DNA of 64,000 nucleotides from Xiphias gladius (Eukaryota; Chordata; Actinopteri; Istiophoriformes; Xiphiidae), in NCBI RefSeq assembly GCF_016859285.1, contig NC_053408.1, positions 4,781,713-4,845,712 on the forward strand, read 5' to 3'. The translations under genes were made by a program, and so were the position numbers. Shown here in pieces: positions 1,416 to 60,345 of the stretch. The notes under the pieces were generated by a model that was given only the letters and a program-made list of their open reading frames with translations, ran no database searches and was not told the DNA's origin. The stretch's first letter is position 1; every line of letters begins with the position of its first letter.

Positions 1416-2021
1416 TCATCTCTTTCTGTTCCTGTTGTGCTTCACCATCTTCTTCCTCTTCAGGATCATCTCGTACAGTTTCTCCAGGCCCGGCTGGAGT
1501 CCCTGACCGTTCACGGCACTGCAGCTCTGCACGTGATGCAGCGTGTACATGCTCAGTTCATGGACAGAAAGCAGCTTCTCCACCTCACTGACAGACAAGG
1601 CTGAGTCCAGGTCCTGTTTGTTGGCCAGGATCAGCACAGGGACCCCTTGGTTCTCTGAGGTGCGGGTGATCTTATGGAGCTCCACTTTGGCCTCCTCCAT
1701 CCGCTCCAGCTCAGTGGAGTCCACCACAAACACCATCCCGTCCGTCCGCCGGGTGTAAGACTTCCAAAGCGGGCGCAGCTTCTCCTGCCCGCCCACATCC
1801 CACACCTGGAAGTTTATGGCCCGAGACGCCCCCACTGCCACCTTGATCTTCTCCGTGTTGAAGCCCTTGGTGGGGATCGTCTTCACAAACTCCTTCAGTT
1901 TGAGCCTGTACAGCAGAGAGGTTTTGCCGGCTGAGTCCAGGCCGATAACCACCACGTGCAGCGACTGGAAGTTTGGCAGGAACGGCGTGTTAGGAGCGAT
2001 ATCGGTCAGCTGGTTCCCCAT
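1416..2021 (-). CDS. arl4d: ADP-ribosylation factor-like GTPase 4D
   Basis: This is a complete 201-residue small GTPase of the ARF/ARL family in a single coding exon, as is usual for ARL4 genes; human ARL4D is also 201 residues. I chose the ATG at 2021 because it gives MGNQ, with a myristoylation-type Gly2 and the family's N-terminus. An upstream in-frame ATG would only add residues from a CA repeat. Visible motifs are the P-loop GLDSAGKT (residues 27-34), switch II DVGGQE (75-80), NKQD for guanine recognition, and a very basic C-terminal tail ([14 protein letters not shown]) acting as a nuclear/nucleolar and membrane-binding signal in ARL4 proteins. The family acts at the plasma membrane, recruiting cytohesin Arf exchange factors and affecting actin. 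The human neighbour TMEM106A also lies beside it here. Confidence 0.95.
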
Positions 2022-2163
2022 GATTCCAGCCAGCGATTCACACCTACTTAAGTGAGGTGACGTGACAGACTCCTGATTTAATCCTTTTTCAGGAGATTGG
2101 CATTTGCCTCCCTGTCCTCGGAGGCAGATGGGATCAGATGGTGTGGAGGCCTTATCAAAAAAC

Positions 2164-2196
2164 ACGCAAACACACACACACGCACGCACACGCACG

Positions 2197-2234
<38 letters not shown>

Positions 2235-2238
2235 CATA
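2164..2238. repeat. CA dinucleotide microsatellite
   Basis: An imperfect CA repeat with CG interruptions lies just upstream of the arl4d coding exon, in its 5' UTR or intron. Reading through it creates a spurious Cys/Val-rich N-terminal extension of the arl4d frame. Confidence 0.95.
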
Positions 2239-2984
2239 TGCACACAGTGAGTTAACAGTCAATGAGAAGACAATGGGTGGTTAAGAAACGTGTGTTTGCG
2301 TTTCACAGTGTCCTACAGAAGAGACACTGACAATAGATAGTGGTAATCATCAGTGGAGACACATTGCAAATTACTTGATGCAATTTCATCCTATCAGCAC
2401 GGCAGCTTCTGTTGTGTCCACAGCTGAGATTTAGTGCCTTACTTGTCCCCCCAAACTTGAGTCCGTTCAAATTCTCTTTTAATGATATAAAACAATAAAT
2501 ATCTGCGGGGGGTTTAGTGCCACATTACAGAGCCGAACAACAGTTAATTGGATGTCTGAGGTTATCTAGTTTCTTATTTGCTAAGGATAATCCTCTTAAG
2601 ACCTCTAAACCTGAACGGCTTTTCTTGCGCGGGGCAGACCGATTTCAATGCAGCGGATGGATAATATGCATTCACTGGTTCACTCTGCCAACTGCCTACG
2701 AGGACTGCTGCAGCAGCACTAATCCGGTTGTTGTTGACATCCCGATACCCATCAAACAGCTGCCTTTGGACAGAGTACAGCCCCTGCATGTTCACAGGAA
2801 GATATTACTAACTTATGATCATCCTGCATCCTGTAAAAGCATCATTCTTCATGGAGGCAGAATGTACTGTCACGCTTCTGAATTGTTGATTTCATTACTT
2901 CACTGTATTTGAAATGATTCTATTGGGAATAAGCCCCCTTAGTTTTCCTCCTCTCCTGCACGAAACCTACCCATCTTAGTTTGG

Positions 2985-14739: not shown

Positions 14740-17700
14740 TCAGTGCTGAGCGTCGACAGCTTCGTTCTGGCTGTCCTCGGCCATCTGCACCAGCTCGTTG
14801 ACGGTGTGCAGCAGACTGTACCCGTGCTTCCTCAGCAGCTGCTGGTTGAGGCACTGGTCTCTGAAGCCCATCTCCAGCAGCATGGCCATCATGGAAGGGT
14901 CCTGTCTGGTGGCTGGGTCGATGCCTCGCTGGATGGCGGGCGAGAAAAACGCGTTAGGAGGAGAGCACTGAGCGGGAGAGTTGAGGTCAGTGGAGGGTAA
15001 ATGGAGACGAGAAGGTGAGCGCTATTGTGGTCGTGTCTGTCCATCCCAGGTGCCTAAACGTGACACTGAATGTTGGTGTGATAGCAAGAATTAATTCAAA
15101 TTCAACCCTGCTGCTGCATTACACTCCTTGTAACTACAGCGTAAAAAGACTTTGTTTACCCAGAACTTGTCTTGTCAGGCGGCATGCGCCCCCAAGGCTA
15201 TGTACCTCTCTAACAAAGCTTCTCCAGCTTAACATTTATTGAACCACTTGTAATCATATACTTAAAAATGAACCACTGTGTTAAGGGAGCTTGTTGGCAA
15301 GCTCTGTACTGCATGGTGGGAAGGACCGTAAAACTAAAACAATGAGCTGAAAGACACCAAAACACTCCATAGAGCTGAGGGGAACTGCAGAGTTGGGTGA
15401 TATTTCTTGTTGTCCCCACAACAAACATCTTTCATATTACGTAGAAAAATCGGATTCATTGTCAATATAAAAATATCGATTATAGCTACTTTAAATAGCT
15501 ATAATCATTATTTTGGGGGAGAATACTTCCGTTATGTTAACTCAAAAAGCCCCCACAGGATCCTGAGATACTGGAAACGTGACATCTCACACACCAGCTC
15601 TACCCAATCAATTTTGGCATGTTTTGCTGTCATGTAATGAAGCTTTGAGTCACAACTCTTCCCCACTCTGGACGTCTTCCTCTGCACGTTGGCTATACTT
15701 TTTTTTTTAAAAGTGTGGACATAATAACGCTGTGTGATGTACCTGTATCGCACAGTTTGGTCCAGTGAAGAGGGCCTTATAAGCGGACGCTGCCACAGAA
15801 AGAGCCCCCTTGACAAGTCCCTCTGTGATGCCTCCTTGGCCCCTGGTACAAAGACAGAGATGTGGTTGCACTGGGTTATGTAACCGTACTACAAGGAACA
15901 ACGTGTTCCAGTTTTCTTCATTGTCACAAAAAGGCACAAACAGTAGATATGACAATTTCCTTCACAAGAGCGAAGCGTCGTCAAGTTTTACTTTTTGATA
16001 TATAGCACCTTGGCTGCAGCGCGTTGCTGGGTCTGGGGTTGTATGTCTCAAAGGCACTGGATGCTGAGCCTGCTGATCTGGACAGACCAGATGACACTGC
16101 AGAACAAATAACACACGCAAACACACATAACATTAGAGCCTTCTGCTGAAGCGACAAATCCTGAGAGCCTGCAGGCTGGCTTGCTTCCTGTCATAAAAAC
16201 CAAGGGGCAAAATGTGTTTCCTTTCTGGCCTCAACCGAGCCAACAACTCTTCAAATGACAAAACCGCAAATTCAGGCCAACAGTGTGAGTCAAACAGTAG
16301 GATCTGAGGCAGCACTGTAGTTACACTATAAACTTTTCAATCCAGGAATATGTCTTATTTATGTTTTGCAATATAGCGGCACTGAGTGGAAGTTAAAATA
16401 AAAAACACTGGTAAAGATGTTATGCTGACGCTGTAGTGGCTTGTGTGCCATGCGTGCCAGTTCGCACTGTGACACTGTGATGTGCTTGTATCCAGCGATT
16501 CAAGTATTAAAACTCACCATTTAGGTGGACCCTTGGTTGGCACGGCTCATATGGTTCACAGGCTGGAGGACTGTGGTCCTCAGCCAGGTACAGTGCCTCA
16601 GACCTGAAAAGACAGTAAACGACCTACAATGAACCCATATAAGGCTGTAGCAGGGGGATAAAAATGACAATGGACAGAGCTCACTTTGGGGCTTTATTTA
16701 AAAACCTGAAACCAGGAATTAATATGCATCCATTTTAAATAGCAAAATTTGATTTTCCTTCTGTTCCCAGAGACATATTCCAAGCTTTTTTGTTCCCCTT
16801 GCAACTGGAGCCTGATCTGACCTTGACAGTTTCTTGCTAAACTTTAATTAACATTAATACTCGGCTTCCATATGGATGCTCGACCAGCTTCTGGCACATT
16901 TCACTATGTGTATTGGTAACTGACAATGTTAGCTGAAGACAGAACACATTTTTTAGCATGAGAACATAAAATTTGGCAGTAACTCAGTTTAAATTGCTCT
17001 ATTTCTTTCATAATCAGATAGTATTTTTTGATGAAAATGCACGTTTTGTGTGTGTTAACAGACTTCTGAACTACAGAGGATCATTTGACTGAGCCCCCAT
17101 CTGACCTGGGTGAGTAGAGGGCCGGTGGGGACAGCAGGAAGTCAGGCAGAATCGGCGGTGGCACCACTTCAGGGGTGAGCGTCACGGCGTCCAGCGTTTG
17201 GGAAGCGCACAGCATCTGGTTCACGCTGCTGTGGATGGGAGGGACGGGTGGAGGCCGGGTGTTCACTGGTGAATCCTCAGCGGCGACCACCTCCGTCCTC
17301 TCCTGCCTCTCTCTCAGCGGTGCCGCCCTGCCCGACTCAGAGTCGGAGTCGTCCTCTTTCTCCTGGTGTACGTCTGGATCGGCTGCGGTCGCGGCAGCAA
17401 CGGCGGCGGTGTCAGGCTGAGACATGGCGGAGCTGTACATGGACTCCCCCAGGGGACGGCTGGTGTCAAAGCAGTCTGGGAGGACGATGATGTAGTCGTC
17501 GCATGAGGAGACTGAGGAGGTCTGGCTGCTGACCTGAGCCACGGGAGGAGAAGATGGTGACATTTACGGACGTCATTACATGAGAAGGACAACGCTAGCA
17601 CCTCTTACAATATGTTTCTGAATATGTTTTTTTACTGGGATGAGAAAATTCTCCTACCACATATTCTAAAATAGAAAAAAAACTTTATTTGACCCATGCT

Positions 17701-23700: not shown

Positions 23701-26005
23701 TACAGCTTCTCGCTCCGGTGTGACCTGTGTGCCCTTGTCCACAGTCTTGACCCTGGAGGGATAAGGAGGAGCAGGCCGGAGGTCTCCTTTCAGCTCCTTC
23801 ACCTCCGTCTTCAGTGGGCCTCCGCAGGCCTGCCCTTTCATCTTGTACACGTTCATGTGTAACTGGTTCCCCTGCTTCTCTGCACTCTGGGCGGAAAATA
23901 AGCCGAAATCACATACCACAGGAGACTGACACAAAAATATGCAAAATGCAAATGCCACGTGTAACATATACAGGAATGTCTTATATTGCTATCACATGAC
24001 TTTTGACAAAATAAGCTGTTTAGGATTCACTATATCAATGCACTGTAGTTGTGTTTGCCACGTTTGTCATTTATATATCCTTGCTATTTGTCTTCCTCTG
24101 TGTATTCTGTACAGCGGTAACTATGTGAATGCTCCTACACTAGAACTACTGCATAATTGTAATGTGTTTATGTCTTAAGCACAGTCATGTCTGTATGATG
24201 CATGAGGTCGTGTCATACTTTTGTCAAGTACATAGAGAGCAACAGTCATGTAAGGAGAAGTATTTTCTTTGACTGAATTTTGACTATTAAAATGTTCTAG
24301 ATTCTGCATGATCTCTGCACTTATTCCTCTGTTAATGGCCAAGGCTTGTGTTATGTGCCGTTAAATTCAATCCTGTCTTCACTTTTCTACAGAAATCCCG
24401 CTCTGCCGCAGTACCTTGATGGCTTCTTCGTATTCATCTGAAATAAAATACAAAATAAATCAGCAGTAAGTTCCTTGTACAATTACCTAGTAACCAATTC
24501 AAGTTTTTATATTTTGTAATTACAGTTAAAGCCTCATATTAAACGTTTATCTCACAAATTTGTGTTTTAGTTTGTATCATATTCCCAGACATAAACAAAA
24601 TTAGGGATGCAAGTAATGATTACTTGAAATTTTTTTCACAATTAATCGATTAATTGTTTGGTCTATAAAATGTCTTAAAACAGTGAAAAATGCCTATCAC
24701 AATCCTCCACAAATCCAAAGTGACATCTTCAAATGTGTTTTTTGCCAAACCAGCAGACCAAAACCCAAAGATATTTAATTGATATAAAACAGAGAAAAGC
24801 AGAAAATCCCCACACATCATAAGCTGGAACGACATCACATTTGGCATCTTCGCTCGAAAAATTACTCAAATGATTATTCGATTATCAAAATTAGGGCTGC
24901 AACTCATTATCGAATAATATGCAGATGATGTCTCTGCTTAACTGATTGTTCAGTCTAGAAAATGGAAAAATAATGGAAAAAAAAAAAAACTTAACAATTT
25001 CCCAGAAACCAAAGTGACATCTTCAAAATTTAGTTTTGACCAACCAACTCTCCAAAGCCCAAAGATATTCAGTTACCTGTCATATAAAGCAAGGAAAAGC
25101 AGCAAATTCTCACATTTGAGAAGCTGGAATCAGCAAATATTTCTCATTTTTGCTCTTAAAATGATGGAAACGATGAATCAATTGTAAAAAAAATAGTTGC
25201 TGATTAATTTTCTTCCAAGCGATTAATTGTTGCAGCTCTAATTTATATGATCCTTCTATTAAATGTCAGAGTTAGTGTTTTGATAACTTCAGCTCTACTT
25301 TATAGGCAGACAGCTTGTGATAAAAAACACAGAAAAACAACCTCACCTTGACTGTTTATACAAATCTGAAAGAATGAATGAGATCAGAATGAGTCCGCGA
25401 ACATACAGCCGGCCAAAACATCATGATAATTCTGCAATAAATGTAAAAAGACAACAGCAGTGCGCATAGTTATGTACACTCTCTTACCTCCTCATTGTCC
25501 TCATCAAAGTATTTCACTTGAAAGTGGTTGATCCCAAAAGACGCTTTGATCTGAGAAGTAAAATGTTATGAGACAGCACGTTATAAAACCAGAACTTTTT
25601 TTTTTCGCCTCACACGTATTATGAAAACATCAATAATGGCCCGTTGGGAAAAGAAATACCTCCACAGCCACCTACTGCACATGGATAAACAAAAGCAGTA
25701 AAGCAAACCGAGCAGATTTCCCTTTCCCTGCGTATTTTCCAGACGCGCTGGCCGGCTTAAAAATTAACTTATGTCCACGTTGTGTCGCAACAGTATCGAC
25801 CGTCCTTCAGGTGGTCTATTGTTTACGTGTCTAGGCCATGTCTGGGCCTGCTTCTCGCCAAACTGCGCCAGCGTTTAGCCGACGCGCTCCGCTAGCAGCT
25901 TACCCAGGCTTCGACCGATTCCCACTCCAGCTTGTCCAAATCCTGAGCCAGAAACCTCTTCACATTCCCCCGGAAATTGACTTTGATAGTAACGGGGAGC
26001 CCCAT
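14740..26005 (-). CDS. nbr1: NBR1 autophagy cargo receptor
   Basis: NBR1 links ubiquitinated cargo and peroxisomes to ATG8/LC3 on forming autophagosomes. Twenty-two exons join without a frame break to 1084 aa (human 966): 26005-25904, 25550-25488, 25365-25347, 24437-24415, 23886-23704, 23298-23221, 23129-22906, 22573-22454, 22208-21909, 21567-21408, 21016-20720, 20110-20009, 19804-19729, 19538-19428, 19255-19076, 18924-18754, 18529-18375, 17533-17106, 16603-16518, 16096-16009, 15842-15743, 14928-14740. In order: PB1 domain (1-85, acidic YFDEDNEE), ZZ zinc finger (about 210-260, CSSCNK..YKCSVCPSC), basic coiled coil (275-310), four-tryptophan FW domain (about 385-490), LC3-interacting YIIV (802-805) in CDDYIIVLPDCFD, amphipathic KGALSVAASAYKALF, and C-terminal UBA (1035-1075). 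Exons 3 and 4 are microexons (19 and 23 nt). Least certain is the exon 11 donor (CAT|GTAAAT). Confidence 0.93.
15478..15506. repeat. short perfect inverted repeat
   Basis: GATTATAGCTA and its exact complement are separated by 7 bases (CTTTAAA). It lies in the last nbr1 intron and may be chance in AT-rich DNA. Confidence 0.5.
20385..20685 (+). repeat. family N dispersed repeat copy
   Basis: It begins GCCTGAAACTAACAATTC, carries TTTAGTCCATAAAATGC and CATCTTCAAG, and ends with ATTAATCGATTA and GATTAG blocks. This is a very common teleost repeat recognised by its ATTAATCGATTA ends and internal TCTATAAAATG..GAAGCTGGAA motifs (family N in these notes). It ends about 35 bases from the nbr1 exon 11 donor. 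Confidence 0.7.
21020..21175. repeat. CA-rich tract before nbr1 exon 11
   Basis: Interrupted ACACAC/ATACAC runs. On the gene strand this is a GT-rich tract directly upstream of the acceptor at 21017/21016. Confidence 0.8.
24605..25245 (+). repeat. two adjacent family N copies in nbr1 intron 3
   Basis: Copy one (24605-24890) and copy two (24890-25245) follow head to tail. Each has the TCTATAAAATG- or TCTAGAAAATG-type motif, a CATCTTCAAA block, a GAAGCTGGAA-type block and ATTAAT ends. They fill most of the intron between the 19-nt and 23-nt exons of nbr1. Confidence 0.7.
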
Positions 26006-35470: not shown

Positions 35471-35840
35471 AGATAATCCTTTACATAACTGATGGCCAGG
35501 CCTGCACAATACCTCCAGGGACAGTGCCCAAAAATCTGAATGTCCTAGCGTCTAAAAACAGGATAAACAATCCTAGTAAATATAGAAAACTACTCTAATA
35601 ATTGACTTTAAAGTACAGGTTGAAATCACAAGTTCTTGTCTTCTCTCTTTCCCTTGCAAATCCCATTGAGAGCCCAAGGCACCAGTGTGGTTGGGATTAA
35701 AAGTGCAACTGCACTCTTTCCGAAAGACAGGAAATAGAAAGTCGTATGGTTTTCCGAGGAAAAGGTGCATCCATCCAACAGTTGAAGCAGGAACAAAGAC
35801 ATAATGATACATCCCATCTTGGAAGCGGCACTTGTGTTTG

Positions 35841-36098
35841 TCCTCTTGGTCTCAGTGTAGAGCGGTGAGTGCAGGCCCAGGCCCAGGCCGAACAGGGTGC
35901 CCATGTTACGCAGGAGGTTGGCGAAGGGCGTGGTGTCCAGGTGGACCCACTCGGGCCTGACGCACAGCTTCTGGGCTTTCTCCAGGGTCCACAGCAGGTC
36001 CACGCCCAGAGCTTTGAGCAGGAGGTAGAAGCCGACGGCGAAGGAGGTCAAGAAGAGGGTGGTGTAGAAGTACTGCTTCATGCTGGCGCTGTAGATCC
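35841..36098 (-). other. gene-conversion tract, minus-strand copy
   Basis: 258 bases of exon 5 match 41900-42157 with only 6 differences. Identity stops sharply at both sides. Confidence 0.85.
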
Positions 36099-37109
36099 GT
36101 CTCTCCTTGGAGACCAGCTCAGTGACTAGTACACCTGACTCAAAAACAGAACAGGGTCCATCAGACTCCACGTTTATAAAGCCTGTTGGGCGAGTAGAGG
36201 TGGTGTATATGCTTTTAGGTGAGTGATGGTTTAATTGCATGTATGACTCAGTGAAACCTCATCCCCAAACAAACTCACAGTGATGGAAGAGGTAATCATG
36301 TCCTTTATTTAAGTAAAAACTTTTACCCAAGTAAAAATGTTTTTCCTGAAAGCTATCTGCATGAAAATGGAAGTCAAATTGCCCAAAAAAACCTCACAAA
36401 ATCTGCTTTTTATTGGTATCAAAAGGATTCAGATAACAGTCTTGAATTGTTTAGGTAGACTAACCTGTAATGACTCCAGCAATAACCTGGTGTGGTAAGT
36501 GGGCAGCCATGTAGACCCTAGACATGCAGACCACCAGCTCCACCAGGCCCATTAGCATCCACAGGCCTATCTGCAAGAATCTGACAAGAGAGTGGGTACT
36601 GAACGTGGGCCCCAGAGGATCAGAGGACAGCAGAGTTGAGGGTTTTTATTTGACTCCCAAGAGCCATTTTTCAAATAAATGAATGATTGTATTACCACAG
36701 ACTCACTTGTAGAGTAAAGGGGGGCATCGCTTCTCCGTTGCAGTAGAGAGCAGCGCTGTTACCATCACATACCAGACGCCGGCTGCACCCATGGCATGAC
36801 CTGAAGGACTTCCTGCAAGAGCAGACTCATTCTTACTTAAACAGACTCAAGCAGGCTTATCCTCAGGCTTTATAGGCTCCAGTGTCATCTCCGGAGGTGA
36901 GTTTTCACAGGCAATGAAGTCGTCATCATTTGTTGTAAAGATTCATTGTACTTATAATGTCCAATTGTAGAGTGAACGTTGTTGAAGCGTATTAAGTAAA
37001 ATCTTGACGAGCAGTATAAATTACCTACGTGGCTAACCTGTGCTCATAAATCTTAACCATGCACAGTCATCTGAGTTTATCTGTTTAAAATTAATTAAAA
37101 TAATTACAA

Positions 37110-37472
37110 GGAAACGGACGGAAATTGTTCAGTTTGAGAAACTGTTAACTGGGCCAATAATGGAAGTAGTTGCCGGATAATTTTCCATCAGCTGACAAAT
37201 TGATTAATCAACTAATTGTCTCAGCTTTAATTGTATACACTGTTGGGTAGTTTAATCTATAACAAAGCATCATACTGTATTTTATATGCTCTTCATATGT
37301 TTTATATGTAGAATCTAAATTTGAAAAGTAACTAATAATTATAGCAGTCAAATAAAAAGAGTGGAGTGAAAACTATAATGTTTCCCTCTGAACTGTAGTG
37401 ACGTCGGGGGTATAAAGTGGCAGAAAGTACAAGTACTTGAGTAAATGTACTCAGTTACATTTCGCCACTGCA
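37110..37472 (+). repeat. family N fragment followed by family P right half
   Basis: 37110-37225 has the ATTAATCAACTAATT end of family N. 37226-37472 has ACTGTTGGGTAGTTTAATC, GTAACTAATAATTATAGC and the CACTGC terminus of P. Both lie in intron 2 of the decaying glucose-6-phosphatase copy. A P left-end fragment (36278-36352) lies in its intron 4. Confidence 0.65.
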
Positions 37473-38226
37473 TGTGTGCGCACAGAGAAGGAAAAACCGG
37501 AGCAAATGCAATCACTGAACCACTGACAAAAAAAGGAGCCATTACGCAGTTCAAGCCTAAGTTTCTCTATGCAGATTAAGAGATGAAAAAACGTTATAAA
37601 AGGCCAACGGTACTGGAGTTTATAATTCAAAGGGGAAGCCATGTACACAAACACCTCAGATATTATCGGAGAATTAATTAACCAGGGTAATGGTTCACTG
37701 CACCAGATAATTCTAATCATTCTAACAGACAAACTCAATCAGCTCCTCAAGAAAAGACAGTCATCGCATGTGATCCGCTGCAGGTCTGGTGTGAACTGTA
37801 ACTGGTCCAGTCTCACACGTGATGGGGAACTGCTGCAGAGAAGGGGCCGGAGCTGCTCGGTAAAACTGGGTCTCGTGAACCCACCAGTAGGGTCTCTCCC
37901 CAAAAAGAACCCTGCCGTGGAGAGACCGAGGGACTCAAACTACAACTCTGTCTCTCTCTTCATGTGATTTTTCGACTTGACTTCACCGTCGCATTCGAGC
38001 GGATTACCATTTCAGCACCAAGTTGAGCCAGTCTCCGATGACAGCCACCCAGATGAGCCTGAGCCCCGTGTCCCCCCGCAGGTGGAACCAGACTGGGAAC
38101 AACCAGAAGAACGCGGTGTGCAGATCGGCCACTGTGGACGCCAGGCTAAACAAGCCCTCGTACCTGCTGTATCTGGTCTGCAGATGGATCGCAAGCTCAA
38201 CCCCCCCAGCTGTGGAGAAGATCCAT

Positions 38227-39545
38227 GATATCACAGCCCAGACCTCTGATGATGGTGGATGATGAGGATGATGCACTGAGTCCGGGGTGTTTTGCCTTTT
38301 TTTTTTGTTGGTTAGGTTGCTGCCAGGTTCTTTCAGGCAGTCCTCTCTGCTCTGCCACTGTGTGATCGCCATTGGACTTTACTCAAGGCTAGCAAATTTG
38401 TTTCCCTTTGGGACAGTACAGACAGGTTCCTTAACCTTTACACCCCCCTGAGGCCCCTGAGAGTAAAATCCAACATCACAGACATCAGCTGCAGCCCCTC
38501 CGACGGATCACAGATTTCTAGGAGAACCTTATTTTTCCTTCGATCAATGAAAATAAAGTAGCTTCCGTTTTCACTCCAAACCATTTGCCAGTGAAATCCA
38601 TTGATCTTGGCTGACAATTTATCTTCTGCGTCATGTGAATGGTGTTACAGTTAATCACATTTTTCCTCCTACTTGTGCTTGGGACCCACGACGTGAAAAA
38701 TGATAACATTCTCACCACCGCCATGTCCCTCGAAAGAAGATAAGAATATGAGCTCATCTGCGGGGATGTCCCTGCCACTCACATTTGTCGCAACAGAGCA
38801 GAAACTTGAGCTCGACCTACAACCTGCCAATCTGCTCCTTCTGTTTTATCAGCGACTATCTCCTCAGCTTCTACTTGGTCCAAACCCAGTCATTTAATCA
38901 TTGATCTCCTTATGTAACCTAGAAATGGGTTACTCCATCGTTCTGAGCGTTCTGAGATGTTTTCACCAAATCATCAAAAAAACAATTGCATAACCGAGAG
39001 ATTATTACTCAGCGGCTGCGTGAATGTGGAAGAAATAACATGGAAAAAGTGTCCCTTACTGTCAGTTTTGGTCCAAACCTGAGCACTGTTGAGTACATTC
39101 TAAGAAATAAAGAAGACGTAGCTGATATTCAAAAAATACATTACAGCTCAATTAAAAGCAAATGTCACTCTGCAAACTGTTGGTTTGTATATGATTGGTT
39201 TAATTTAGGTCACAATTGTGAAACACAGCCACTGGTCAACTGACTTCCTCCCTCTACGTTACGTACAGTGGTTCAGTGAGAAAGATACCGATTGACGTTT
39301 TTTTTTTTCTCCTGCTATCTTTTCCACTTGTTTGTGTGACAAGCCTCCAAAACTCTCCTGACTCCCAGCGTTTTATTACACATGTGCAAGGTCCAAAGAT
39401 CAGTGTGAGCATGCGTCTGGGTAGTGGGTCCCGCTGGTATAAAACTAACAAGCCGTGTCACTGACAGCAACAGTGCCTGGTTTTTCTTCGCTCTAACTCG
39501 CTCACTCTTCGCCAAAGTGAGAGTTCTCCCCTGCTCGAGGCCGAG
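38227..39545. promoter_or_regulatory. divergent region between the two glucose-6-phosphatase copies
   Basis: About 1.3 kb between the start codons. For the plus copy a TATA box (TATAAAA, 39438-39444) lies about 100 bases before the ATG, matching the TATA promoters of this hormone-regulated gene. A CRE-like GTTACGTAC lies near 39257-39265. No TATA box was found for the minus copy. Confidence 0.55.
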
Positions 39546-42366
39546 ATGCTCAACGCTGTCATGGACGCCTTGCAGGGTTTCGGGGTGAGCACCACCCACT
39601 ACCTGCAGACCAACTATCAGGATGCCCAGGGCTTGTTTCTCTGGGTGTCCTGGGCGGCTGACCTCAGGAACACCTTCTTTATCTTGTTCCCACTTTGGTT
39701 TCACCTGCGGGCCTCAGTGGGCATCAAGCTCATCTGGGTGGCAGTGATCGGAGACTGGCTCAACTTGGTGTTTAAATGGTGAGTCGAGTGCATCTTTGAA
39801 TTTGCGTTTGTGAGCAAAATCATGTGAAATCAAATGTTCTTGACAATTTTTCCTAAAGATTATGACAAAGTGCATGTTTCTGTTGCGTTCTTCAGGATTC
39901 TGTTTGGGGAGAGACCTTACTGGTGGGTCCATGAGACGGCTCATTATGCCAATACTGTCCCTCCTCACATTGAGCAGTACCCCATGACCTGTGAGACTGG
40001 GCCAGGTGAGAAATGCCACTGTACATGCATGGCTGGAGCAAAAATGAGCTGCTGTGTCTGAGAGCTTTAGAGGAGAAGTGGGGGTATTGTATCTTAATTG
40101 TATCTTGATTTGAAAAGTAACTGCCAGCTATAGCGGCCAGATGATTGTAGTGGAGTAAAAAGTAAAATATTTCCCTGCAAAATGTAACAGAGTAGAAGTA
40201 TAAAGTAGAACAAAATGGAATAGTCTAGTAAAGTACGTCAAAAATTGCCCTTTAGTGCAATACTTGAGTAAATGTATTCAGTTACTCTCACCACCGTCTC
40301 TGATAGGAGTAAGAGAAAAACAAGATAAATGTTTGGTCCTTGTTCATTCATTCACACATTTAAGCAAAATGAATGAATGAAGGATGCAGCTTGCTGTGGT
40401 CCAAGATTAAGTTCTGCCTGCGTGAATCAGCCACTGACACCTATCCTCTGTGCTTGTGGTAACCAGGCAGCCCGTCTGGACACGCCATGGGAGCTGCAGG
40501 TGTCTACTACACCCTGGTGACCTCCATCCTCGCCATCACGACCAGCATGAAGAAACATGGCAGCAAGAAATCCAGCGACAAAGAATGGTGAGTCCGAGAG
40601 AATCTACAAAACCTACAGCTTTGCTCTGTTGTCCCCACTGATGTCAGGGTTGTTTACCATTTTCTTCCACTCAGAGCTTATCATTGTCGACACACTATCT
40701 GTCCTCACGCTGGTGGTTGATCATTGACTTCTGAGAACTATTGGGCGGAAAGCGGGGGTTGTGCATGGGTTGTTTTGACGTCCAGCCAGCTGAAGTTCTC
40801 ATTATGAGCAGAGAATAACTGTGTTGGTTGTTATATTGCTTCAAAACGTTGACTTGCTGGTTGACCGGCAAAGGCCGGACTGATTTAAATCAAACACCCT
40901 CTGCGAATTCAGCCCGTCTTGTTTTGACGTTTGCATTTTCCGTAACAGAATTTGTAATTTGTTTAAATGTGAATTTTGACAGGTATCTGAACGCCATTCT
41001 GTGGACACTGTTTTGGGGAGTCCAGGTGTGTGTCTGTCTGTCCAGGGTCTTCATAGCTGCCCACTTTCCCCACCAGGTCATCGCTGGTGTCATCACAGGT
41101 CAGTATGGTCATGTTTTAATACACAATTTCAGTAGACGATTGAATAACTCATTAGGAATAGATTAAGAATAATCGTCAAGCGTGAAGGTTTGGTTTCAGA
41201 AGGGGGGCGTTTGGAGGGTTTGGGGTGTGTGGAGGTACAGTGAAGTGAAAAAAATTGTGTGTATAAATCGTGCACATCACAAATTATTATAAAAAGCTGG
41301 TGACTGTGATTTCCATAATAATGGTAGTATATCAAAATATAGAAATACTCTGTAAACCTCTGTATTTTAACCGTACTTAAAATAATTTTTTTTTTTTCTT
41401 ATTGATACCTGATACTTTCTGATCTGATGTGAAATTCTAGCATCTTTTTGGGCAATATTAGTTGTCAATAAAAAAAAGATTCAGTGATTTTTTTTTAGTT
41501 GGCAGTGCCTTTTTTCAGCCCTCATTAGTGTTTGCAGGTATTCATAAAGTCCAGGAAGGTTGGGCAGCCTGTATGTAGCATGAGAGACAAACCCCAGGAC
41601 AAAAAAGACCATTTAGTCTTTTAGAAACCATTTAGTGGCATCACTCTTATCAATATTGTTATCAACTGGGCGTTTCTTGCATTTGGACCGTGGTGGCTGG
41701 ACAGTAAGAGAACAATATTCAGTGAGACTTCAGCAAGCAAATCAGCCTGCAACAATAAAAGTGGGGGGTGGGCGTTTCCCAAACCATCCCCAGAAATTAC
41801 GCCCTTGGCTTAATATATAATACATGGTATTGACCTGGGTTTTTCAACGTGTTTTGTTCTTAGGTATGATCGTCGCTGAAGCCTTCAACAGAACTCAGTG
41901 GATCTACAGCGCCAGCATGAAGAAGTACTTCTACACCACCCTCTTCTTGACCTCCTTCGCCGTCGGCTTCTACCTCCTGCTCAAAGCTCTGGGCGTGGAC
42001 CTGCTGTGGACCCTGGAGAAAGCCCAGATGTGGTGCGTCAGGCCCGAGTGGGTCCACCTGGACACCACGCCCTTCGCCAGCCTCCTGCGTAACATGGGCA
42101 CCCTGTTCGGCCTGGGCCTGGGCCTGCACTCACCGCTCTACACCGAGACCAAGAGGAGCGGCAGCACGCTGGCCAGAGCAGGGTGCATCATCAGCTCTCT
42201 GCTCCTGCTGCACCTCTTCGACTCATTCAAGCCTCCCACGCACACCGCCGCTCTGTTCTACCTGCTGTCCTTCTGTAAGAGCGCCACCGTGCCTCTGGTC
42301 ACCGTCAGTATCATCCCCTACTGTGTGAACGGAGCCCTGAGCCTGCAGAACAAAAAGGAACTGTGA
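39546..42366 (+). CDS. g6pc1: glucose-6-phosphatase catalytic subunit 1
   Basis: This ER enzyme hydrolyses glucose-6-phosphate to glucose as the last step of gluconeogenesis and glycogen breakdown. Five exons (the family's usual number) join in frame to 360 aa (human 357): 39546-39778, 39896-40005, 40467-40587, 40983-41098, 41864-42366. Catalytic parts of the PAP2 phosphatase fold are present: Arg in FGERPYWW (residue 84), PSGHAMG with His120, and [12 protein letters not shown] with Arg176 and His182. Nine membrane helices are expected. The C-terminal KKEL is a KKXX-type ER retrieval signal (human KKSL). Exon 3 is 121 nt versus 106 nt in the minus-strand copy, adding five residues in a loop ([13 protein letters not shown]). 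A TATA box lies at 39438. It is head to head with the damaged copy. Which teleost g6pc1 paralogue it is cannot be told from sequence alone. Confidence 0.96.
40110..40300 (+). mobile_element. family P right-end fragment in g6pc1 intron 2
   Basis: GAAAAGTAACTGCCAGCTAT, GTAGTGGAGTAAAAAGTA and AATACTTGAGTAAATGTA, ending TCACCACCG. Confidence 0.7.
41900..42157 (+). other. gene-conversion tract, plus-strand copy
   Basis: Partner of 35841-36098, in inverted orientation. It covers residues from IYSASMK to LYTETKR in exon 5. Confidence 0.85.
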
Positions 42367-50000: not shown

Positions 50001-52110
50001 TCTCTGAAAGAAAAAAGCCTCGGACTTACCAGGCGTAGTTGTAGATTCATTGCACCGAGGCCCCTGCTACACTGTCATTCTGCTCTTTGTGTGTAAATAA
50101 TGAGTCTTTGACAATTAGCACTATCACTATTTTAGGCAACATGAACAGTGTGATATGAATCTTCAGTTGCTGACAAATGTTCTGCATTGTGTAGAATTGC
50201 ATCTATTTATTCGTTCAGTCGTTTGTCATTTGGCTACAGTTTCTCGCAGGCAGTTGTGAACAGCTTCGCAGCCGCAAGTGTGACTGTGTAATTAGGTTCA
50301 TTTGACTGAGGTAACTGCAGTTGTTGCTCACGCACACACACTTTTACAGGAAATACTATCATGGCCCCGGGTGCTGGTATTTATTGCCGTTTACAGTATT
50401 TGAATTCCAGGCTGAGTTTTCTCTTTGATCTCCCCTTCAGACAGGCCGCCGCTGTCTGGCTGGGACACTTCCTCTGAGCAGCAGAAGCGGGAGCAGAGCC
50501 GGAGCCCCGGCCGAGTCCAGAAAACATCAGGTCCACCACGGTTTAAAGACGCGTCGACGGAGACAGACTCTGAGTTCATCCACGGTGGGCCCCCGCGTCT
50601 TCACCGAGCGCGAAGAGCGGAAAAGGGCGCCCCAACTACGATGGAAACAGAGACTCGAGGAGAGCGCCGCGGGCTGCCACCTAGCGACCGCGAGGTTCTG
50701 TCTTCAAGAAATTCAGGAGCTGGGAGTGAGTGTAATGATAGTGATAAAGAGCCGAATGAGAAAACGCCGTCTTCAAACAGAAGAAGAGCATTTCAGGGAC
50801 TGAGGCAAAGTCAGGGTGCAGACTGCTGCGAAATGTGTGGGAGGCCTTTCCACAAAGGTGCCGGTGGGAAGAAAATGAAAACGCGCGCAAGCAAAATCGC
50901 TGCGACAGACAAGAGCCAAACGACAGGACGGAGCTGTTGCAGGGTATGTGGAAAGTTTTTCCGGTACAAACGCTCTTTTCAGAAACATGTACTTAAGCAC
51001 GGGCAGAGCACAGATCTGTGTGGAGTCTGCGGCAAAAATCTGGACTCTGACGAGAGCTTAAAGGTGCATTTACAAAGACACAACGAGGAAAACAGCTGCA
51101 GGGATCAAACGGAGGACAAAGAGTCAAAGGCCGAGCGCTCGGACGCTGAGAGTAAAGTGGGCGACAGTGACGAGGACTGGAGGGAAAGCGAGGGAACTGC
51201 GAGCGACGATGGAGACAGCGATAAGCATGAGACCAAGGAAGGACCTGGTTTACGAAAGACGGAGTCAAAAGCAAAAATTCAAGCATCAAACAAACCTAAG
51301 AGACCTAAGAGCAAGGACTGTAAGGATTTATCTCATCTGAAATACTGCTGCAAAGTGTGTGGCAGGTCTTTCTGCTACAGAGCCTCTTTCCTGAAACACG
51401 TGCAAGAGGACGAGAGGGATACAGATCTTTGCGGCGTCTGTGGGAGACATTTTGAGACCGAGGAGAGCTTGAGGCTTCACCTGCAAACTTACATCCGAAC
51501 CAATGACTGTGAAGTTTGCGGCAAACATTTCGACGGCCACAAACAACTGGAGATGCACATGAGAACCCACACGGGAGAGAAACCGTACATCTGCAGCGTC
51601 TGCGGCAAAGCCTTCGCTCAAAACGGAAATCTGATGGGGCACATGAGAGTTCACACGGGGGAGAGGCCGTACGTTTGCAGCGTGTGCGGCCAGAGCTTCA
51701 GCTTCAAAGAGTACATGATGGCTCACATGAGAATCCACACCGGGGAGAAACCCTTCCTGTGCAGCGTCTGCGGGAAAGGGTTCAGGCAGAGGGGGACCCT
51801 GAAAACGCACATGATGATCCACACGGGGGAGTCCACGCACCGGTGCAGCATCTGCGACAAAAAGTTCTACAAGAGCGGGGCGCTGAAAATCCACATGCGG
51901 TCCCACACGGGAGAGAAGCCGTACCTGTGCAACGTTTGTGGGAAGAGCTTCACCGCGAGCAGCTCGCTCACCAAACACATGGGCGTCCACGAAGGGGAGC
52001 GGACACACTGCTGCGGCGTCTGCGGCAAAGGATTCTTGAGGAAAGAGGATCTGAGAAGGCACGTTCAGACTCACGGGGACGAATCCGCGCAGCTGACTTT
52101 AAGTCTTTAA
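47059..52110 (+). CDS. teleost C2H2 zinc-finger protein
   Basis: This is a likely sequence-specific DNA-binding nuclear protein; target unknown. Three exons join in frame to 654 aa: 47059-47161, 49328-49519, 50441-52110. Exons 1 and 2 encode a helical N-terminal domain ([39 protein letters not shown] followed by EYEEEV..RQRQLLD) found in many teleost zinc-finger proteins, with no zinc ligands. Exon 3 has two early fingers (CCRVCGKFF.., LCGVCGKNL..), a long acidic Ser/Asp/Glu linker, a second similar pair whose final His ligands are changed, then seven canonical fingers (about residues 458-650) with TGEKP-type linkers. The first half-finger (CCEMCGRPF) is incomplete. No KRAB, BTB or SCAN domain is present. 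The start is the first ATG in the CpG-rich first exon. Exact orthology is not recognised. Confidence 0.88.
47358..47705 (+). repeat. family N copy with an internal ATT microsatellite
   Basis: It begins AGGGCTGCAAATAACCATT, passes through an ATT repeat, GAGAAGCTGACACCAG and a GACTAATTTACTAATCC end with AATTGCTGCAGCTC. It lies in intron 1 of the zinc-finger gene. Confidence 0.7.
47885..48100 (+). repeat. TTTGTGGTCGTTTTG-type repetitive tract
   Basis: It begins with a GGGCCCCTGGGCATAGACAG block and continues as near-tandem units of about 20-25 bases built on TTTGTCGTTGTTTTGTG and TTTGTGGTCG. Traces of the same repeat lie at 33715-33800, with a GGGCCCCC block at 28195-28215. Confidence 0.55.
48104..48769. 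mobile_element. MITE-like element with AGGTGTNCCTAATAA ends
   Basis: The left end TAGGTGTACCTAATAAACTG is matched, inverted, at the right by CAAGTTATTAGGAACACCC. The 666-bp interior has no protein. It is a non-autonomous DNA transposon of uncertain superfamily in intron 1 of the zinc-finger gene. Confidence 0.65.
48253..48319. repeat. strong hairpin inside the MITE
   Basis: A 19-bp stem with one mismatch (48265-48283 against 48289-48307, core TAGTTAACTGG) and a 5-base loop, extended outward by imperfect pairing of CCCCC/GGGGG. Confidence 0.8.

Positions 52111-60282: not shown

Positions 60283-60345
<63 letters not shown>

What the first reader, a model, noticed from the sequence alone, without database searches (positions are those of the whole stretch)
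35841..42157. Gene-conversion patch shared by two inverted glucose-6-phosphatase genes
258 bases in exon 5 of the minus-strand copy (36098-35841) and the plus-strand copy (41900-42157) differ at 6 positions (about 97.7% identity). On either side, the same exon has diverged so far that even the protein differs (for example SGSTLARAG against TNTSAASKM). Sharp edges inside one exon cannot come from uniform drift and point to recent conversion between inverted repeats about 6 kb apart. The patch covers the helices around [10 protein letters not shown].
Basis: seen in the sequence. Interest (0 to 1): 0.75.

Follow-up and report, generated by a model that had tools for sequence, protein, structure and literature searches.

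The report
Recurrently copied glucose-6-phosphatase exon segment
In what is almost certainly the swordfish genome, two old, neighbouring, oppositely pointing glucose-6-phosphatase genes share a sharply bounded, recently copied stretch of one exon, and protein comparisons indicate that this same stretch has been copied repeatedly between the two genes in many ray-finned fish while the parts around it kept diverging.

Summary
The 258-base blocks differ at 6 positions; the preceding 36 exon bases match at 15 of 36 and the following 30 at 7 of 30. Synonymous divergence is 0.024 in the patch, 1.17 upstream, saturated downstream; 1 of 77 same-amino-acid codons differ against 43 of 100 and 20 of 28. 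An unlinked family member lacks this silent identity (20 of 45 differ). So this is conversion, not purifying selection. The genes are g6pca.1 (minus) and g6pc1/g6pca.2 (plus); the window is almost certainly swordfish.

In 42 fish pairs both flanks group by paralogue in 861 of 861 quartets, the patch by species in 805 of 861; one clade of .1 patches is rejected (p 1e-39). The paralogue split on the flanks reaches back to bichirs. A module of about 85 residues around luminal loop 2 has thus been homogenised repeatedly, apparently mostly from .2 to .1 and without swapping gene ends; several lineages seem to have escaped. Outside the window only proteins were available. Library searches (capped lists) showed no report of this.

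The parts
35626..36134 (-). exon 5 of g6pca.1 (minus gene), 509 nt including stop
   Evidence: open frame and AG acceptor; protein identical to Xiphias gladius P0121 at all aligned residues
35841..36098 (-). converted patch, minus copy (acceptor by inference), 258 nt, residues about 197-281
   Evidence: 6 mismatches to the plus copy; dS 0.024
36465..36580 (-). exon 4 of g6pca.1
36707..36812 (-). exon 3 of g6pca.1
37802..37911 (-). exon 2 of g6pca.1 (donor gttaca)
38008..38226 (-). exon 1 of g6pca.1; the frame is broken at a run of seven G at about 38201-38207
   Evidence: public model P0121 is labelled LOW QUALITY PROTEIN
38227..39545 (.). 1319-bp spacer between the two start codons: presumed shared divergent promoter region
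   Evidence: gene coordinates; promoter function inferred, not tested
39546..39778 (+). exon 1 of g6pc1/g6pca.2 (plus gene)
39896..40005 (+). exon 2 of g6pca.2
40467..40587 (+). exon 3 of g6pca.2
40983..41098 (+). exon 4 of g6pca.2
41864..42366 (+). exon 5 of g6pca.2, 503 nt including stop
   Evidence: intact 360-aa protein
41900..42157 (+). converted patch, plus copy (donor by inference)

Best explanation
The patch is the newest product of recurrent, regionally restricted interlocus gene conversion between two anciently duplicated, adjacent glucose-6-phosphatase catalytic genes. Shown: silent-site homogenisation in the window's fish with sharp edges inside exon 5; in other fish, at the protein level, the same module groups mostly by species while both flanks of the same proteins group by paralogue; N- and C-parts stay in the same combination in the 42 pairs. 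Inferred: the mechanism is non-crossover repair copying, mostly from g6pca.2 into the faster-evolving g6pca.1. Exon 5 is the longest exon, so its core is probably the last stretch with enough homology to recombine; each copying event renews that homology, so the island sustains itself while flanks and introns fall below the threshold. Purifying selection on luminal loop 2 and its helices probably favours the fixation of repaired copies, and selection for the distinct flanks removes longer tracts. When a lineage stops converting, the .1 patch drifts off, apparently for good (inferred).
For: DNA, window: 6 of 258 differ; dS 0.024 vs 1.17 vs saturated; 1 of 77, 43 of 100 and 20 of 28 same-aa codons differ; GC3 0.94/0.93 (plus/minus) in the patch, 0.71/0.68 upstream, 0.82/0.49 downstream. 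Control: unlinked C3 paralogue against the plus copy over the same patch, 48 of 85 residues alike, 20 of 45 same-aa codons differ. Proteins, 42 pairs: quartets by species/by paralogue/crossed: N-part 0/861/0, patch 805/54/2, C-part 0/861/0; a control stretch of similar cross-paralogue identity (columns 57-120, 0.76): 0/861/0. Own-species paralogue identity in the patch 0.876 against 0.788 across species, 0 of 5000 permutations as high. The patch tree needs 29 changes of paralogue label, as many as random labels (28.4), at least 6 forced by starred branches; the flank tree needs 1. The AU test rejects one .1 clade in the patch, p 1.1e-39. Direction: 13 of 40 patch columns invariant in .2 vary in .1 in at least 2 species, 0 of 14 the other way; within-species patch differences are derived in .1 311 times, in .2 67 times, neither 49. 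Variable columns tell most, e.g. column 239: own-paralogue match 0.90 against 0.49 across species.
Against: DNA was available for one species only; silent-site conversion, inverted orientation and DNA breakpoints are untested elsewhere. In 15 of 42 lineages the own .2 is not closer in the patch than the best other .1, and 54 of 861 patch quartets group by paralogue. Outside the patch a small own-species excess also exists: C-part 0.364 against 0.341 (0 of 5000 permutations), N-part 0.575 against 0.571 (22 of 5000), so exchange may not be strictly confined. Quartets share species and are not independent. The patch tree is poorly resolved (85 columns, 88 rows, 6 starred branches, SH-aLRT alone). 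11 of 42 pairs combine two species of one genus or family, and the .2 rows came from a full-length search. The bichir .1 row is a long branch, so its place is less sure. Direction could also reflect selection against .1 states entering .2. The edges are not fixed: gar, bowfin, Denticeps and Albula extend further.
Confidence: 0.9

Rival explanations
1. Strong purifying selection keeps the segment alike in both paralogues, without conversion.
For: Many patch columns are near invariant and the module holds residues whose replacement abolishes activity in the human enzyme (PMC12264158).
Against: Silent sites are nearly identical too (1 of 77 codons differ); in the unlinked C3 paralogue they are not (20 of 45); variable columns match within species; a control stretch of similar conservation groups by paralogue in 861 of 861 quartets.
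Confidence: 0.02
2. One recent conversion in the swordfish lineage only, over a segment otherwise conserved.
For: The DNA evidence comes from the window alone.
Against: 805 of 861 patch quartets by species; in 25 of 42 lineages the own .2 is strictly the closest of all 42 .2 in the patch, against 2 of 42 in the N-part and 5 of 42 in the C-part; starred pairs in gar, Conger, clupeids, Aplochiton and Tetraodon in the smaller patch tree (SH-aLRT alone).
Confidence: 0.04
3. Assembly or annotation artefact: collapsed repeat or chimaeric gene models.
For: A homopolymer frameshift in the minus copy hints at possible base-level errors; only one assembly of the window was seen.
Against: Both edges lie inside one exon, so exon mis-assignment cannot make it; the copies differ at 6 sites; the same pattern recurs in annotated proteins of many other species.
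Confidence: 0.02
4. Same conversion, but passive: a homology island left in the longest exon, with no selective advantage for sharing the module (as against selected module sharing).
For: Exon 5 is the longest exon; introns and other exons have diverged; GC3 is raised in the patch, as biased conversion alone would do.
Against: Persistence over so many lineages is long for a neutral process (the argument of PMC2720389); in most of the 42 rows the match strings begin and end near the same places.
Confidence: 0.5

Closest known systems
Vasopressin/oxytocin (vasotocin/isotocin) precursor genes: central neurophysin region
   Same: Old duplicates whose central module was repeatedly homogenised by conversion while the flanking, function-defining parts stayed distinct (passages of PMC4432659 seen)
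   Different: There the module is a separate exon (the second); here it is the inside of one exon, in a membrane enzyme
Fugu protocadherin clusters: 3' part of variable exons
   Same: Regional conversion within an exon, raised GC3 in the converted part (passages of PMC1852091 seen)
   Different: Clusters of many genes, not a two-gene head-to-head pair; described there as lineage-specific
Mammalian pairs BMP8A/B, DDX19A/B, TUBG1/2
   Same: Two-copy pairs with concerted evolution of segments for over 100 million years; BMP8A/B are inverted (abstract and passages of PMC2720389 seen)
   Different: About 235 kb and 13 kb apart for the two pairs whose distance I saw, chosen for at least one similar intron; here under 6 kb between patches, inside coding sequence, and a deeper lineage span (dates recalled)
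Interlocus conversion in teleost genome-duplication pairs
   Same: Homogenising conversion in fish duplicates (abstract of PMC10503786 seen)
   Different: Median 7-8% of codon substitutions over 164 duplicated genes; here nearly the whole of one segment of a neighbouring pair

Membership tests
Interlocus gene conversion (concerted evolution) | silent sites homogenised in the tract | tested here: met
   dS 0.024 vs 1.17 and saturated; window's species only
Interlocus gene conversion (concerted evolution) | abrupt tract ends | tested here: met
   15/36 before, 7/30 after; in proteins the quartet majority changes between windows 161-200 and 201-240, and between 241-280 and 281-320
Interlocus gene conversion (concerted evolution) | paralogues more alike within than between species, in the tract only | tested here: met
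   27 of 42 lineages by the strict criterion; a much smaller excess also in the C-part
Interlocus gene conversion (concerted evolution) | duplication older than the speciations | tested here: met
   flank tree: one .1 group including Erpetoichthys_a, 100/100 (that row is a long branch)
Interlocus gene conversion (concerted evolution) | non-crossover products only | tested here: inconclusive
   no swapped ends in 42 pairs, but orientation is known only in the window
Interlocus gene conversion (concerted evolution) | raised GC at silent sites | tested here: met
   GC3 0.94/0.93 in the patch vs 0.49-0.82 elsewhere
[quoted passage not shown]
   solved chain 9jtl, E 3.6e-150, for the plus protein; Pfam PAP2 in P0121 (model of the minus gene) and in the plus-type orthologue P0002
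[quoted passage not shown]
   -
[quoted passage not shown]
   plus intact; minus frameshifted in exon 1 in this assembly

The most novel reading that the evidence does not exclude
A structural module of an enzyme, its substrate-responsive luminal loop with the adjoining helices, has been kept common to two otherwise diverging genes across ray-finned fish by repeated, mainly one-way, non-crossover conversion between inverted neighbours: a standing copy-repair system in which the conserved gene keeps resetting one part of its faster-evolving partner, and from which lineages escape irreversibly.
Probability: 0.35. Interest if true: 0.78.

Novelty: new member of a known kind. Interest (0 to 1): 0.6.

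Why it matters
It offers a clean, widely sampled natural experiment: one pair of genes, one module, several supported and probably many more conversion events, several apparent escapes, and diverging flanks as a built-in control. It lets one ask directly what keeps conversion going for hundreds of millions of years (dates recalled), what sets tract ends, and what makes a lineage escape. It also warns that gene trees of fish g6pc genes built on whole proteins mix two histories, and that functional claims about g6pca.1 versus g6pca.2 should separate the shared module from the divergent flanks.

Tried and rejected
Purifying selection, a single recent event, and artefact were considered and rejected (see rivals). 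Paper searches on g6pc and gene conversion gave nothing on point, within an open-licence library and capped lists: 20 of 548 listed; 25 of 28; 2 of 2; 10 of 35, general; 13 of 13. The one candidate, PMC2566581, mentions conversion only in general (passages seen). PMC5414149 holds neither 'conversion' nor 'tandem' in its main text (abstract and sections 5 and 9 read). The tRNA scan found none and the Rfam scan one marginal hit, unrelated to the patch. Dating the last event from dS 0.024 was dropped: it rests on about 1.5 synonymous differences and a recalled rate. Crossovers between the inverted patches would flip the interior and swap gene ends; none of the 42 pairs shows swapped ends, though the C-part of the gar .1 row is about equally far from the window's minus and plus proteins (43.7 and 44.3%).
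Full report
What is there. The window carries two five-exon glucose-6-phosphatase genes, head to head, their start codons 1.3 kb apart. The plus gene is intact (360 aa). The minus gene has a run of seven G in exon 1 where the frame breaks; read across it, the protein matches the public Xiphias gladius model P0121, labelled LOW QUALITY PROTEIN, at 196 of 196, 85 of 85 and 71 of 71 aligned residues. P0121 has four extra residues at the exon 2/3 junction, apparently a different splice choice. So the window is almost certainly swordfish. The minus type is named 'glucose-6-phosphatase a, catalytic subunit, tandem duplicate 1' in many fish, here g6pca.1; [quoted passage not shown]

The patch. 258 bases, 6 differences: four residues differ (5 of the 6 base differences) and one difference is silent. 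Protein identity is 57% before, 94% in and 36% after the patch (81 of 85 patch residues). Silent sites decide the matter: dS 0.024 in the patch, 1.17 upstream, saturated downstream; of codons that keep the amino acid, 1 of 77, 43 of 100 and 20 of 28 differ; the longest identical run is 72 of 205 and none of 100,000 shuffles exceeded 36 (the residues before the exon-1 frameshift are left out). The same patch in the unlinked family member on contig C3 differs from the plus copy in 20 of 45 such codons, so silent constraint is no explanation. A DNA search of the whole genome with the patch gave three matches: the two copies, and C3 at 70% over 142 bases. Two of the minus-copy changes hit conserved positions: column 240, W in 233 of 239 aligned rows, and column 256, S in 206 of 239. 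With the frameshift this hints, no more, at relaxed constraint on g6pca.1 in swordfish.

Protein searches listed the best 120 hits each (246 different proteins in all). From I paired .1 and .2 in 42 lineages, 31 from one species and 11 from two species of one genus or family. The .1 rows come from a search with the N-part alone, the .2 rows from a full-length search; partners were chosen by species name, not by the patch. Quartets of identity: N-part 861 of 861 by paralogue; C-part 861 of 861 by paralogue; patch 805 by species, 54 by paralogue, 2 crossed. They are not independent, but the contrast is extreme, and a control stretch of similar cross-paralogue identity (columns 57-120) gives 861 of 861 by paralogue. 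In windows of 40 columns the counts by species are 9 at 161-200, 452 at 181-220, 806 at 201-240, 826 at 221-260, 708 at 241-280, 375 at 261-300 and 1 at 281-320. The patch tree needs 29 changes of paralogue label, like random labels (28.4), with at least 6 forced by starred branches; the flank tree needs 1. Holding the .1 patches as one clade costs 321 log units, p-AU 1.1e-39. Columns that vary between species but match within species are the plainest sign, e.g. column 213 (0.93 within, 0.52 across), 239 (0.90, 0.49), 243 (0.81, 0.41). Against a strict confinement: the C-part also has a small own-species excess, 0.364 against 0.341 (0 of 5000 permutations as high), the N-part 0.575 against 0.571 (22 of 5000).

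How deep. On the flanks, the 17 .1 proteins and one protein of the bichir Erpetoichthys form one group (100/100), against .2 plus tetrapod, lungfish, ray, sturgeon and other bichir proteins (57 rows; the bichir row is a long branch). In the patch tree that bichir row lies among the non-teleost sequences, and gar, Conger, clupeid, Aplochiton and Tetraodon pairs are starred (SH-aLRT alone; gar and clupeid pairs join two genera). This spans ray-finned fish, by recalled dates well over 300 million years. Marandel and others (PMC5414149; abstract and sections 5 and 9 read) already place the two lineages before or around the bony/cartilaginous fish split, as a genome-duplication product; a head-to-head pair 1.3 kb apart suggests to me a local inverted duplication instead. 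Adjacency elsewhere is indicated by consecutive locus tags in Umbra, Lucifuga and Albula.

Escapes. In 15 of 42 lineages the own .2 is not closer than the best other .1: Oryzias, Nerophis, Phycodurus, Hippocampus, Synchiropus, Lucifuga, Boleophthalmus, Eucyclogobius, Knipowitschia, Thalassophryne, the icefish row and four cypriniform rows. The icefish row is a near tie (0.93 against 0.94) and no clear escape. The four cypriniform .1 patches form their own group (SH-aLRT 95). So conversion seems to stop in some lineages, whose patch then follows paralogue history.

Direction. At conserved columns the deviations are .1-only/.2-only/both: N 173/57/8, patch 164/12/34, C 58/15/1 (Fisher, patch against N p 1e-6, against C p 0.003). 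Thirteen of 40 patch columns invariant in .2 vary in .1 in at least two species; none of 14 the other way. The excess of 'both' in the patch is what copying would leave. In the window the minus exon falls from GC3 0.93 in the patch to 0.49 after it, the plus from 0.94 to 0.82. All this favours .2 as donor, but selection against the reverse transfer would look alike.

What the module is. By alignment to human G6PC1 the patch covers about residues 201-283. The cryo-EM paper PMC12264158 (section 5 and passages seen) places C245 on luminal loop 2, which links TM6 and TM7 and turns towards the active centre on substrate binding; replacing D254, T255 or K263 almost abolishes activity; TM7 belongs to the core. 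That the patch takes in TM6 and TM7 is my inference from these positions; helix ends were not seen. The PAP2 signature motifs lie outside, and the Pfam PAP2 match ends before the patch. So the catalytic motifs are not what is being copied.

Mechanism. Shown: copying in the window's fish; at the protein level, repeated homogenisation of one module elsewhere, with the gene ends kept together in 42 of 42 pairs. Inferred: non-crossover repair between close inverted arms; a crossover would invert the interior and swap the ends. The longest exon offers the last usable homology and each event renews it. Selection on the loop and against longer tracts probably shapes the edges; gar, bowfin, Denticeps and Albula show wider matches (the bowfin .1 row lacks 21 patch residues), so the ends are not fixed.

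Verdict. The kind is known (neurophysin region, protocadherins, BMP8A/B); I found no report of this member in the library searched (capped lists, open-licence papers only). Main gap: DNA from other fish.

Noticed in passing
window 38201-38207 (-): Run of seven G in exon 1 of g6pca.1 where the frame breaks; real loss or homopolymer error cannot be told apart here. The public swordfish model is also LOW QUALITY PROTEIN.
   Followed up: partly
window patch, minus copy, residues 240 and 256: The minus copy has changed two conserved residues (W in 233 of 239 rows, S in 206 of 239), the first by a two-base change relative to the plus copy.
   Followed up: partly
P0242-P0246, P0083, P0086, P0099, P0115: Squamates and amphibians have second G6PC1-like copies of their own; Discoglossus copy c lies apart from copies a and b in the flank tree but with them in the patch tree, a hint of the same process there.
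   Followed up: no
window 25488-25550 (-): Marginal Rfam hit NBR2 (41.2 against cut-off 40); an ORF at 17084-17563 (-) looks like NBR1 and one at 1419-2258 (-) like ARL4D by eye (recalled, no search), suggesting the BRCA1/NBR1/G6PC1 neighbourhood of human 17q21.
   Followed up: no
window 50416-52107 (+): Open frame of 564 codons with a stretch that looks like a C2H2 zinc finger by eye (no search).
   Followed up: no
G000 C3:3.49 Mb, C16:14.21 Mb, C9:5.55 Mb: Three more G6PC-family loci in the same genome (matches over the exon-5 region 55%, 44% and 38%); only C3 matched the patch as DNA, at 70% over 142 bases.
   Followed up: partly
window 2173-2226 and 60287-60340: 54-base inverted match, 91%, between distant places; looks like a TG/CA simple repeat, not checked.
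   Followed up: no
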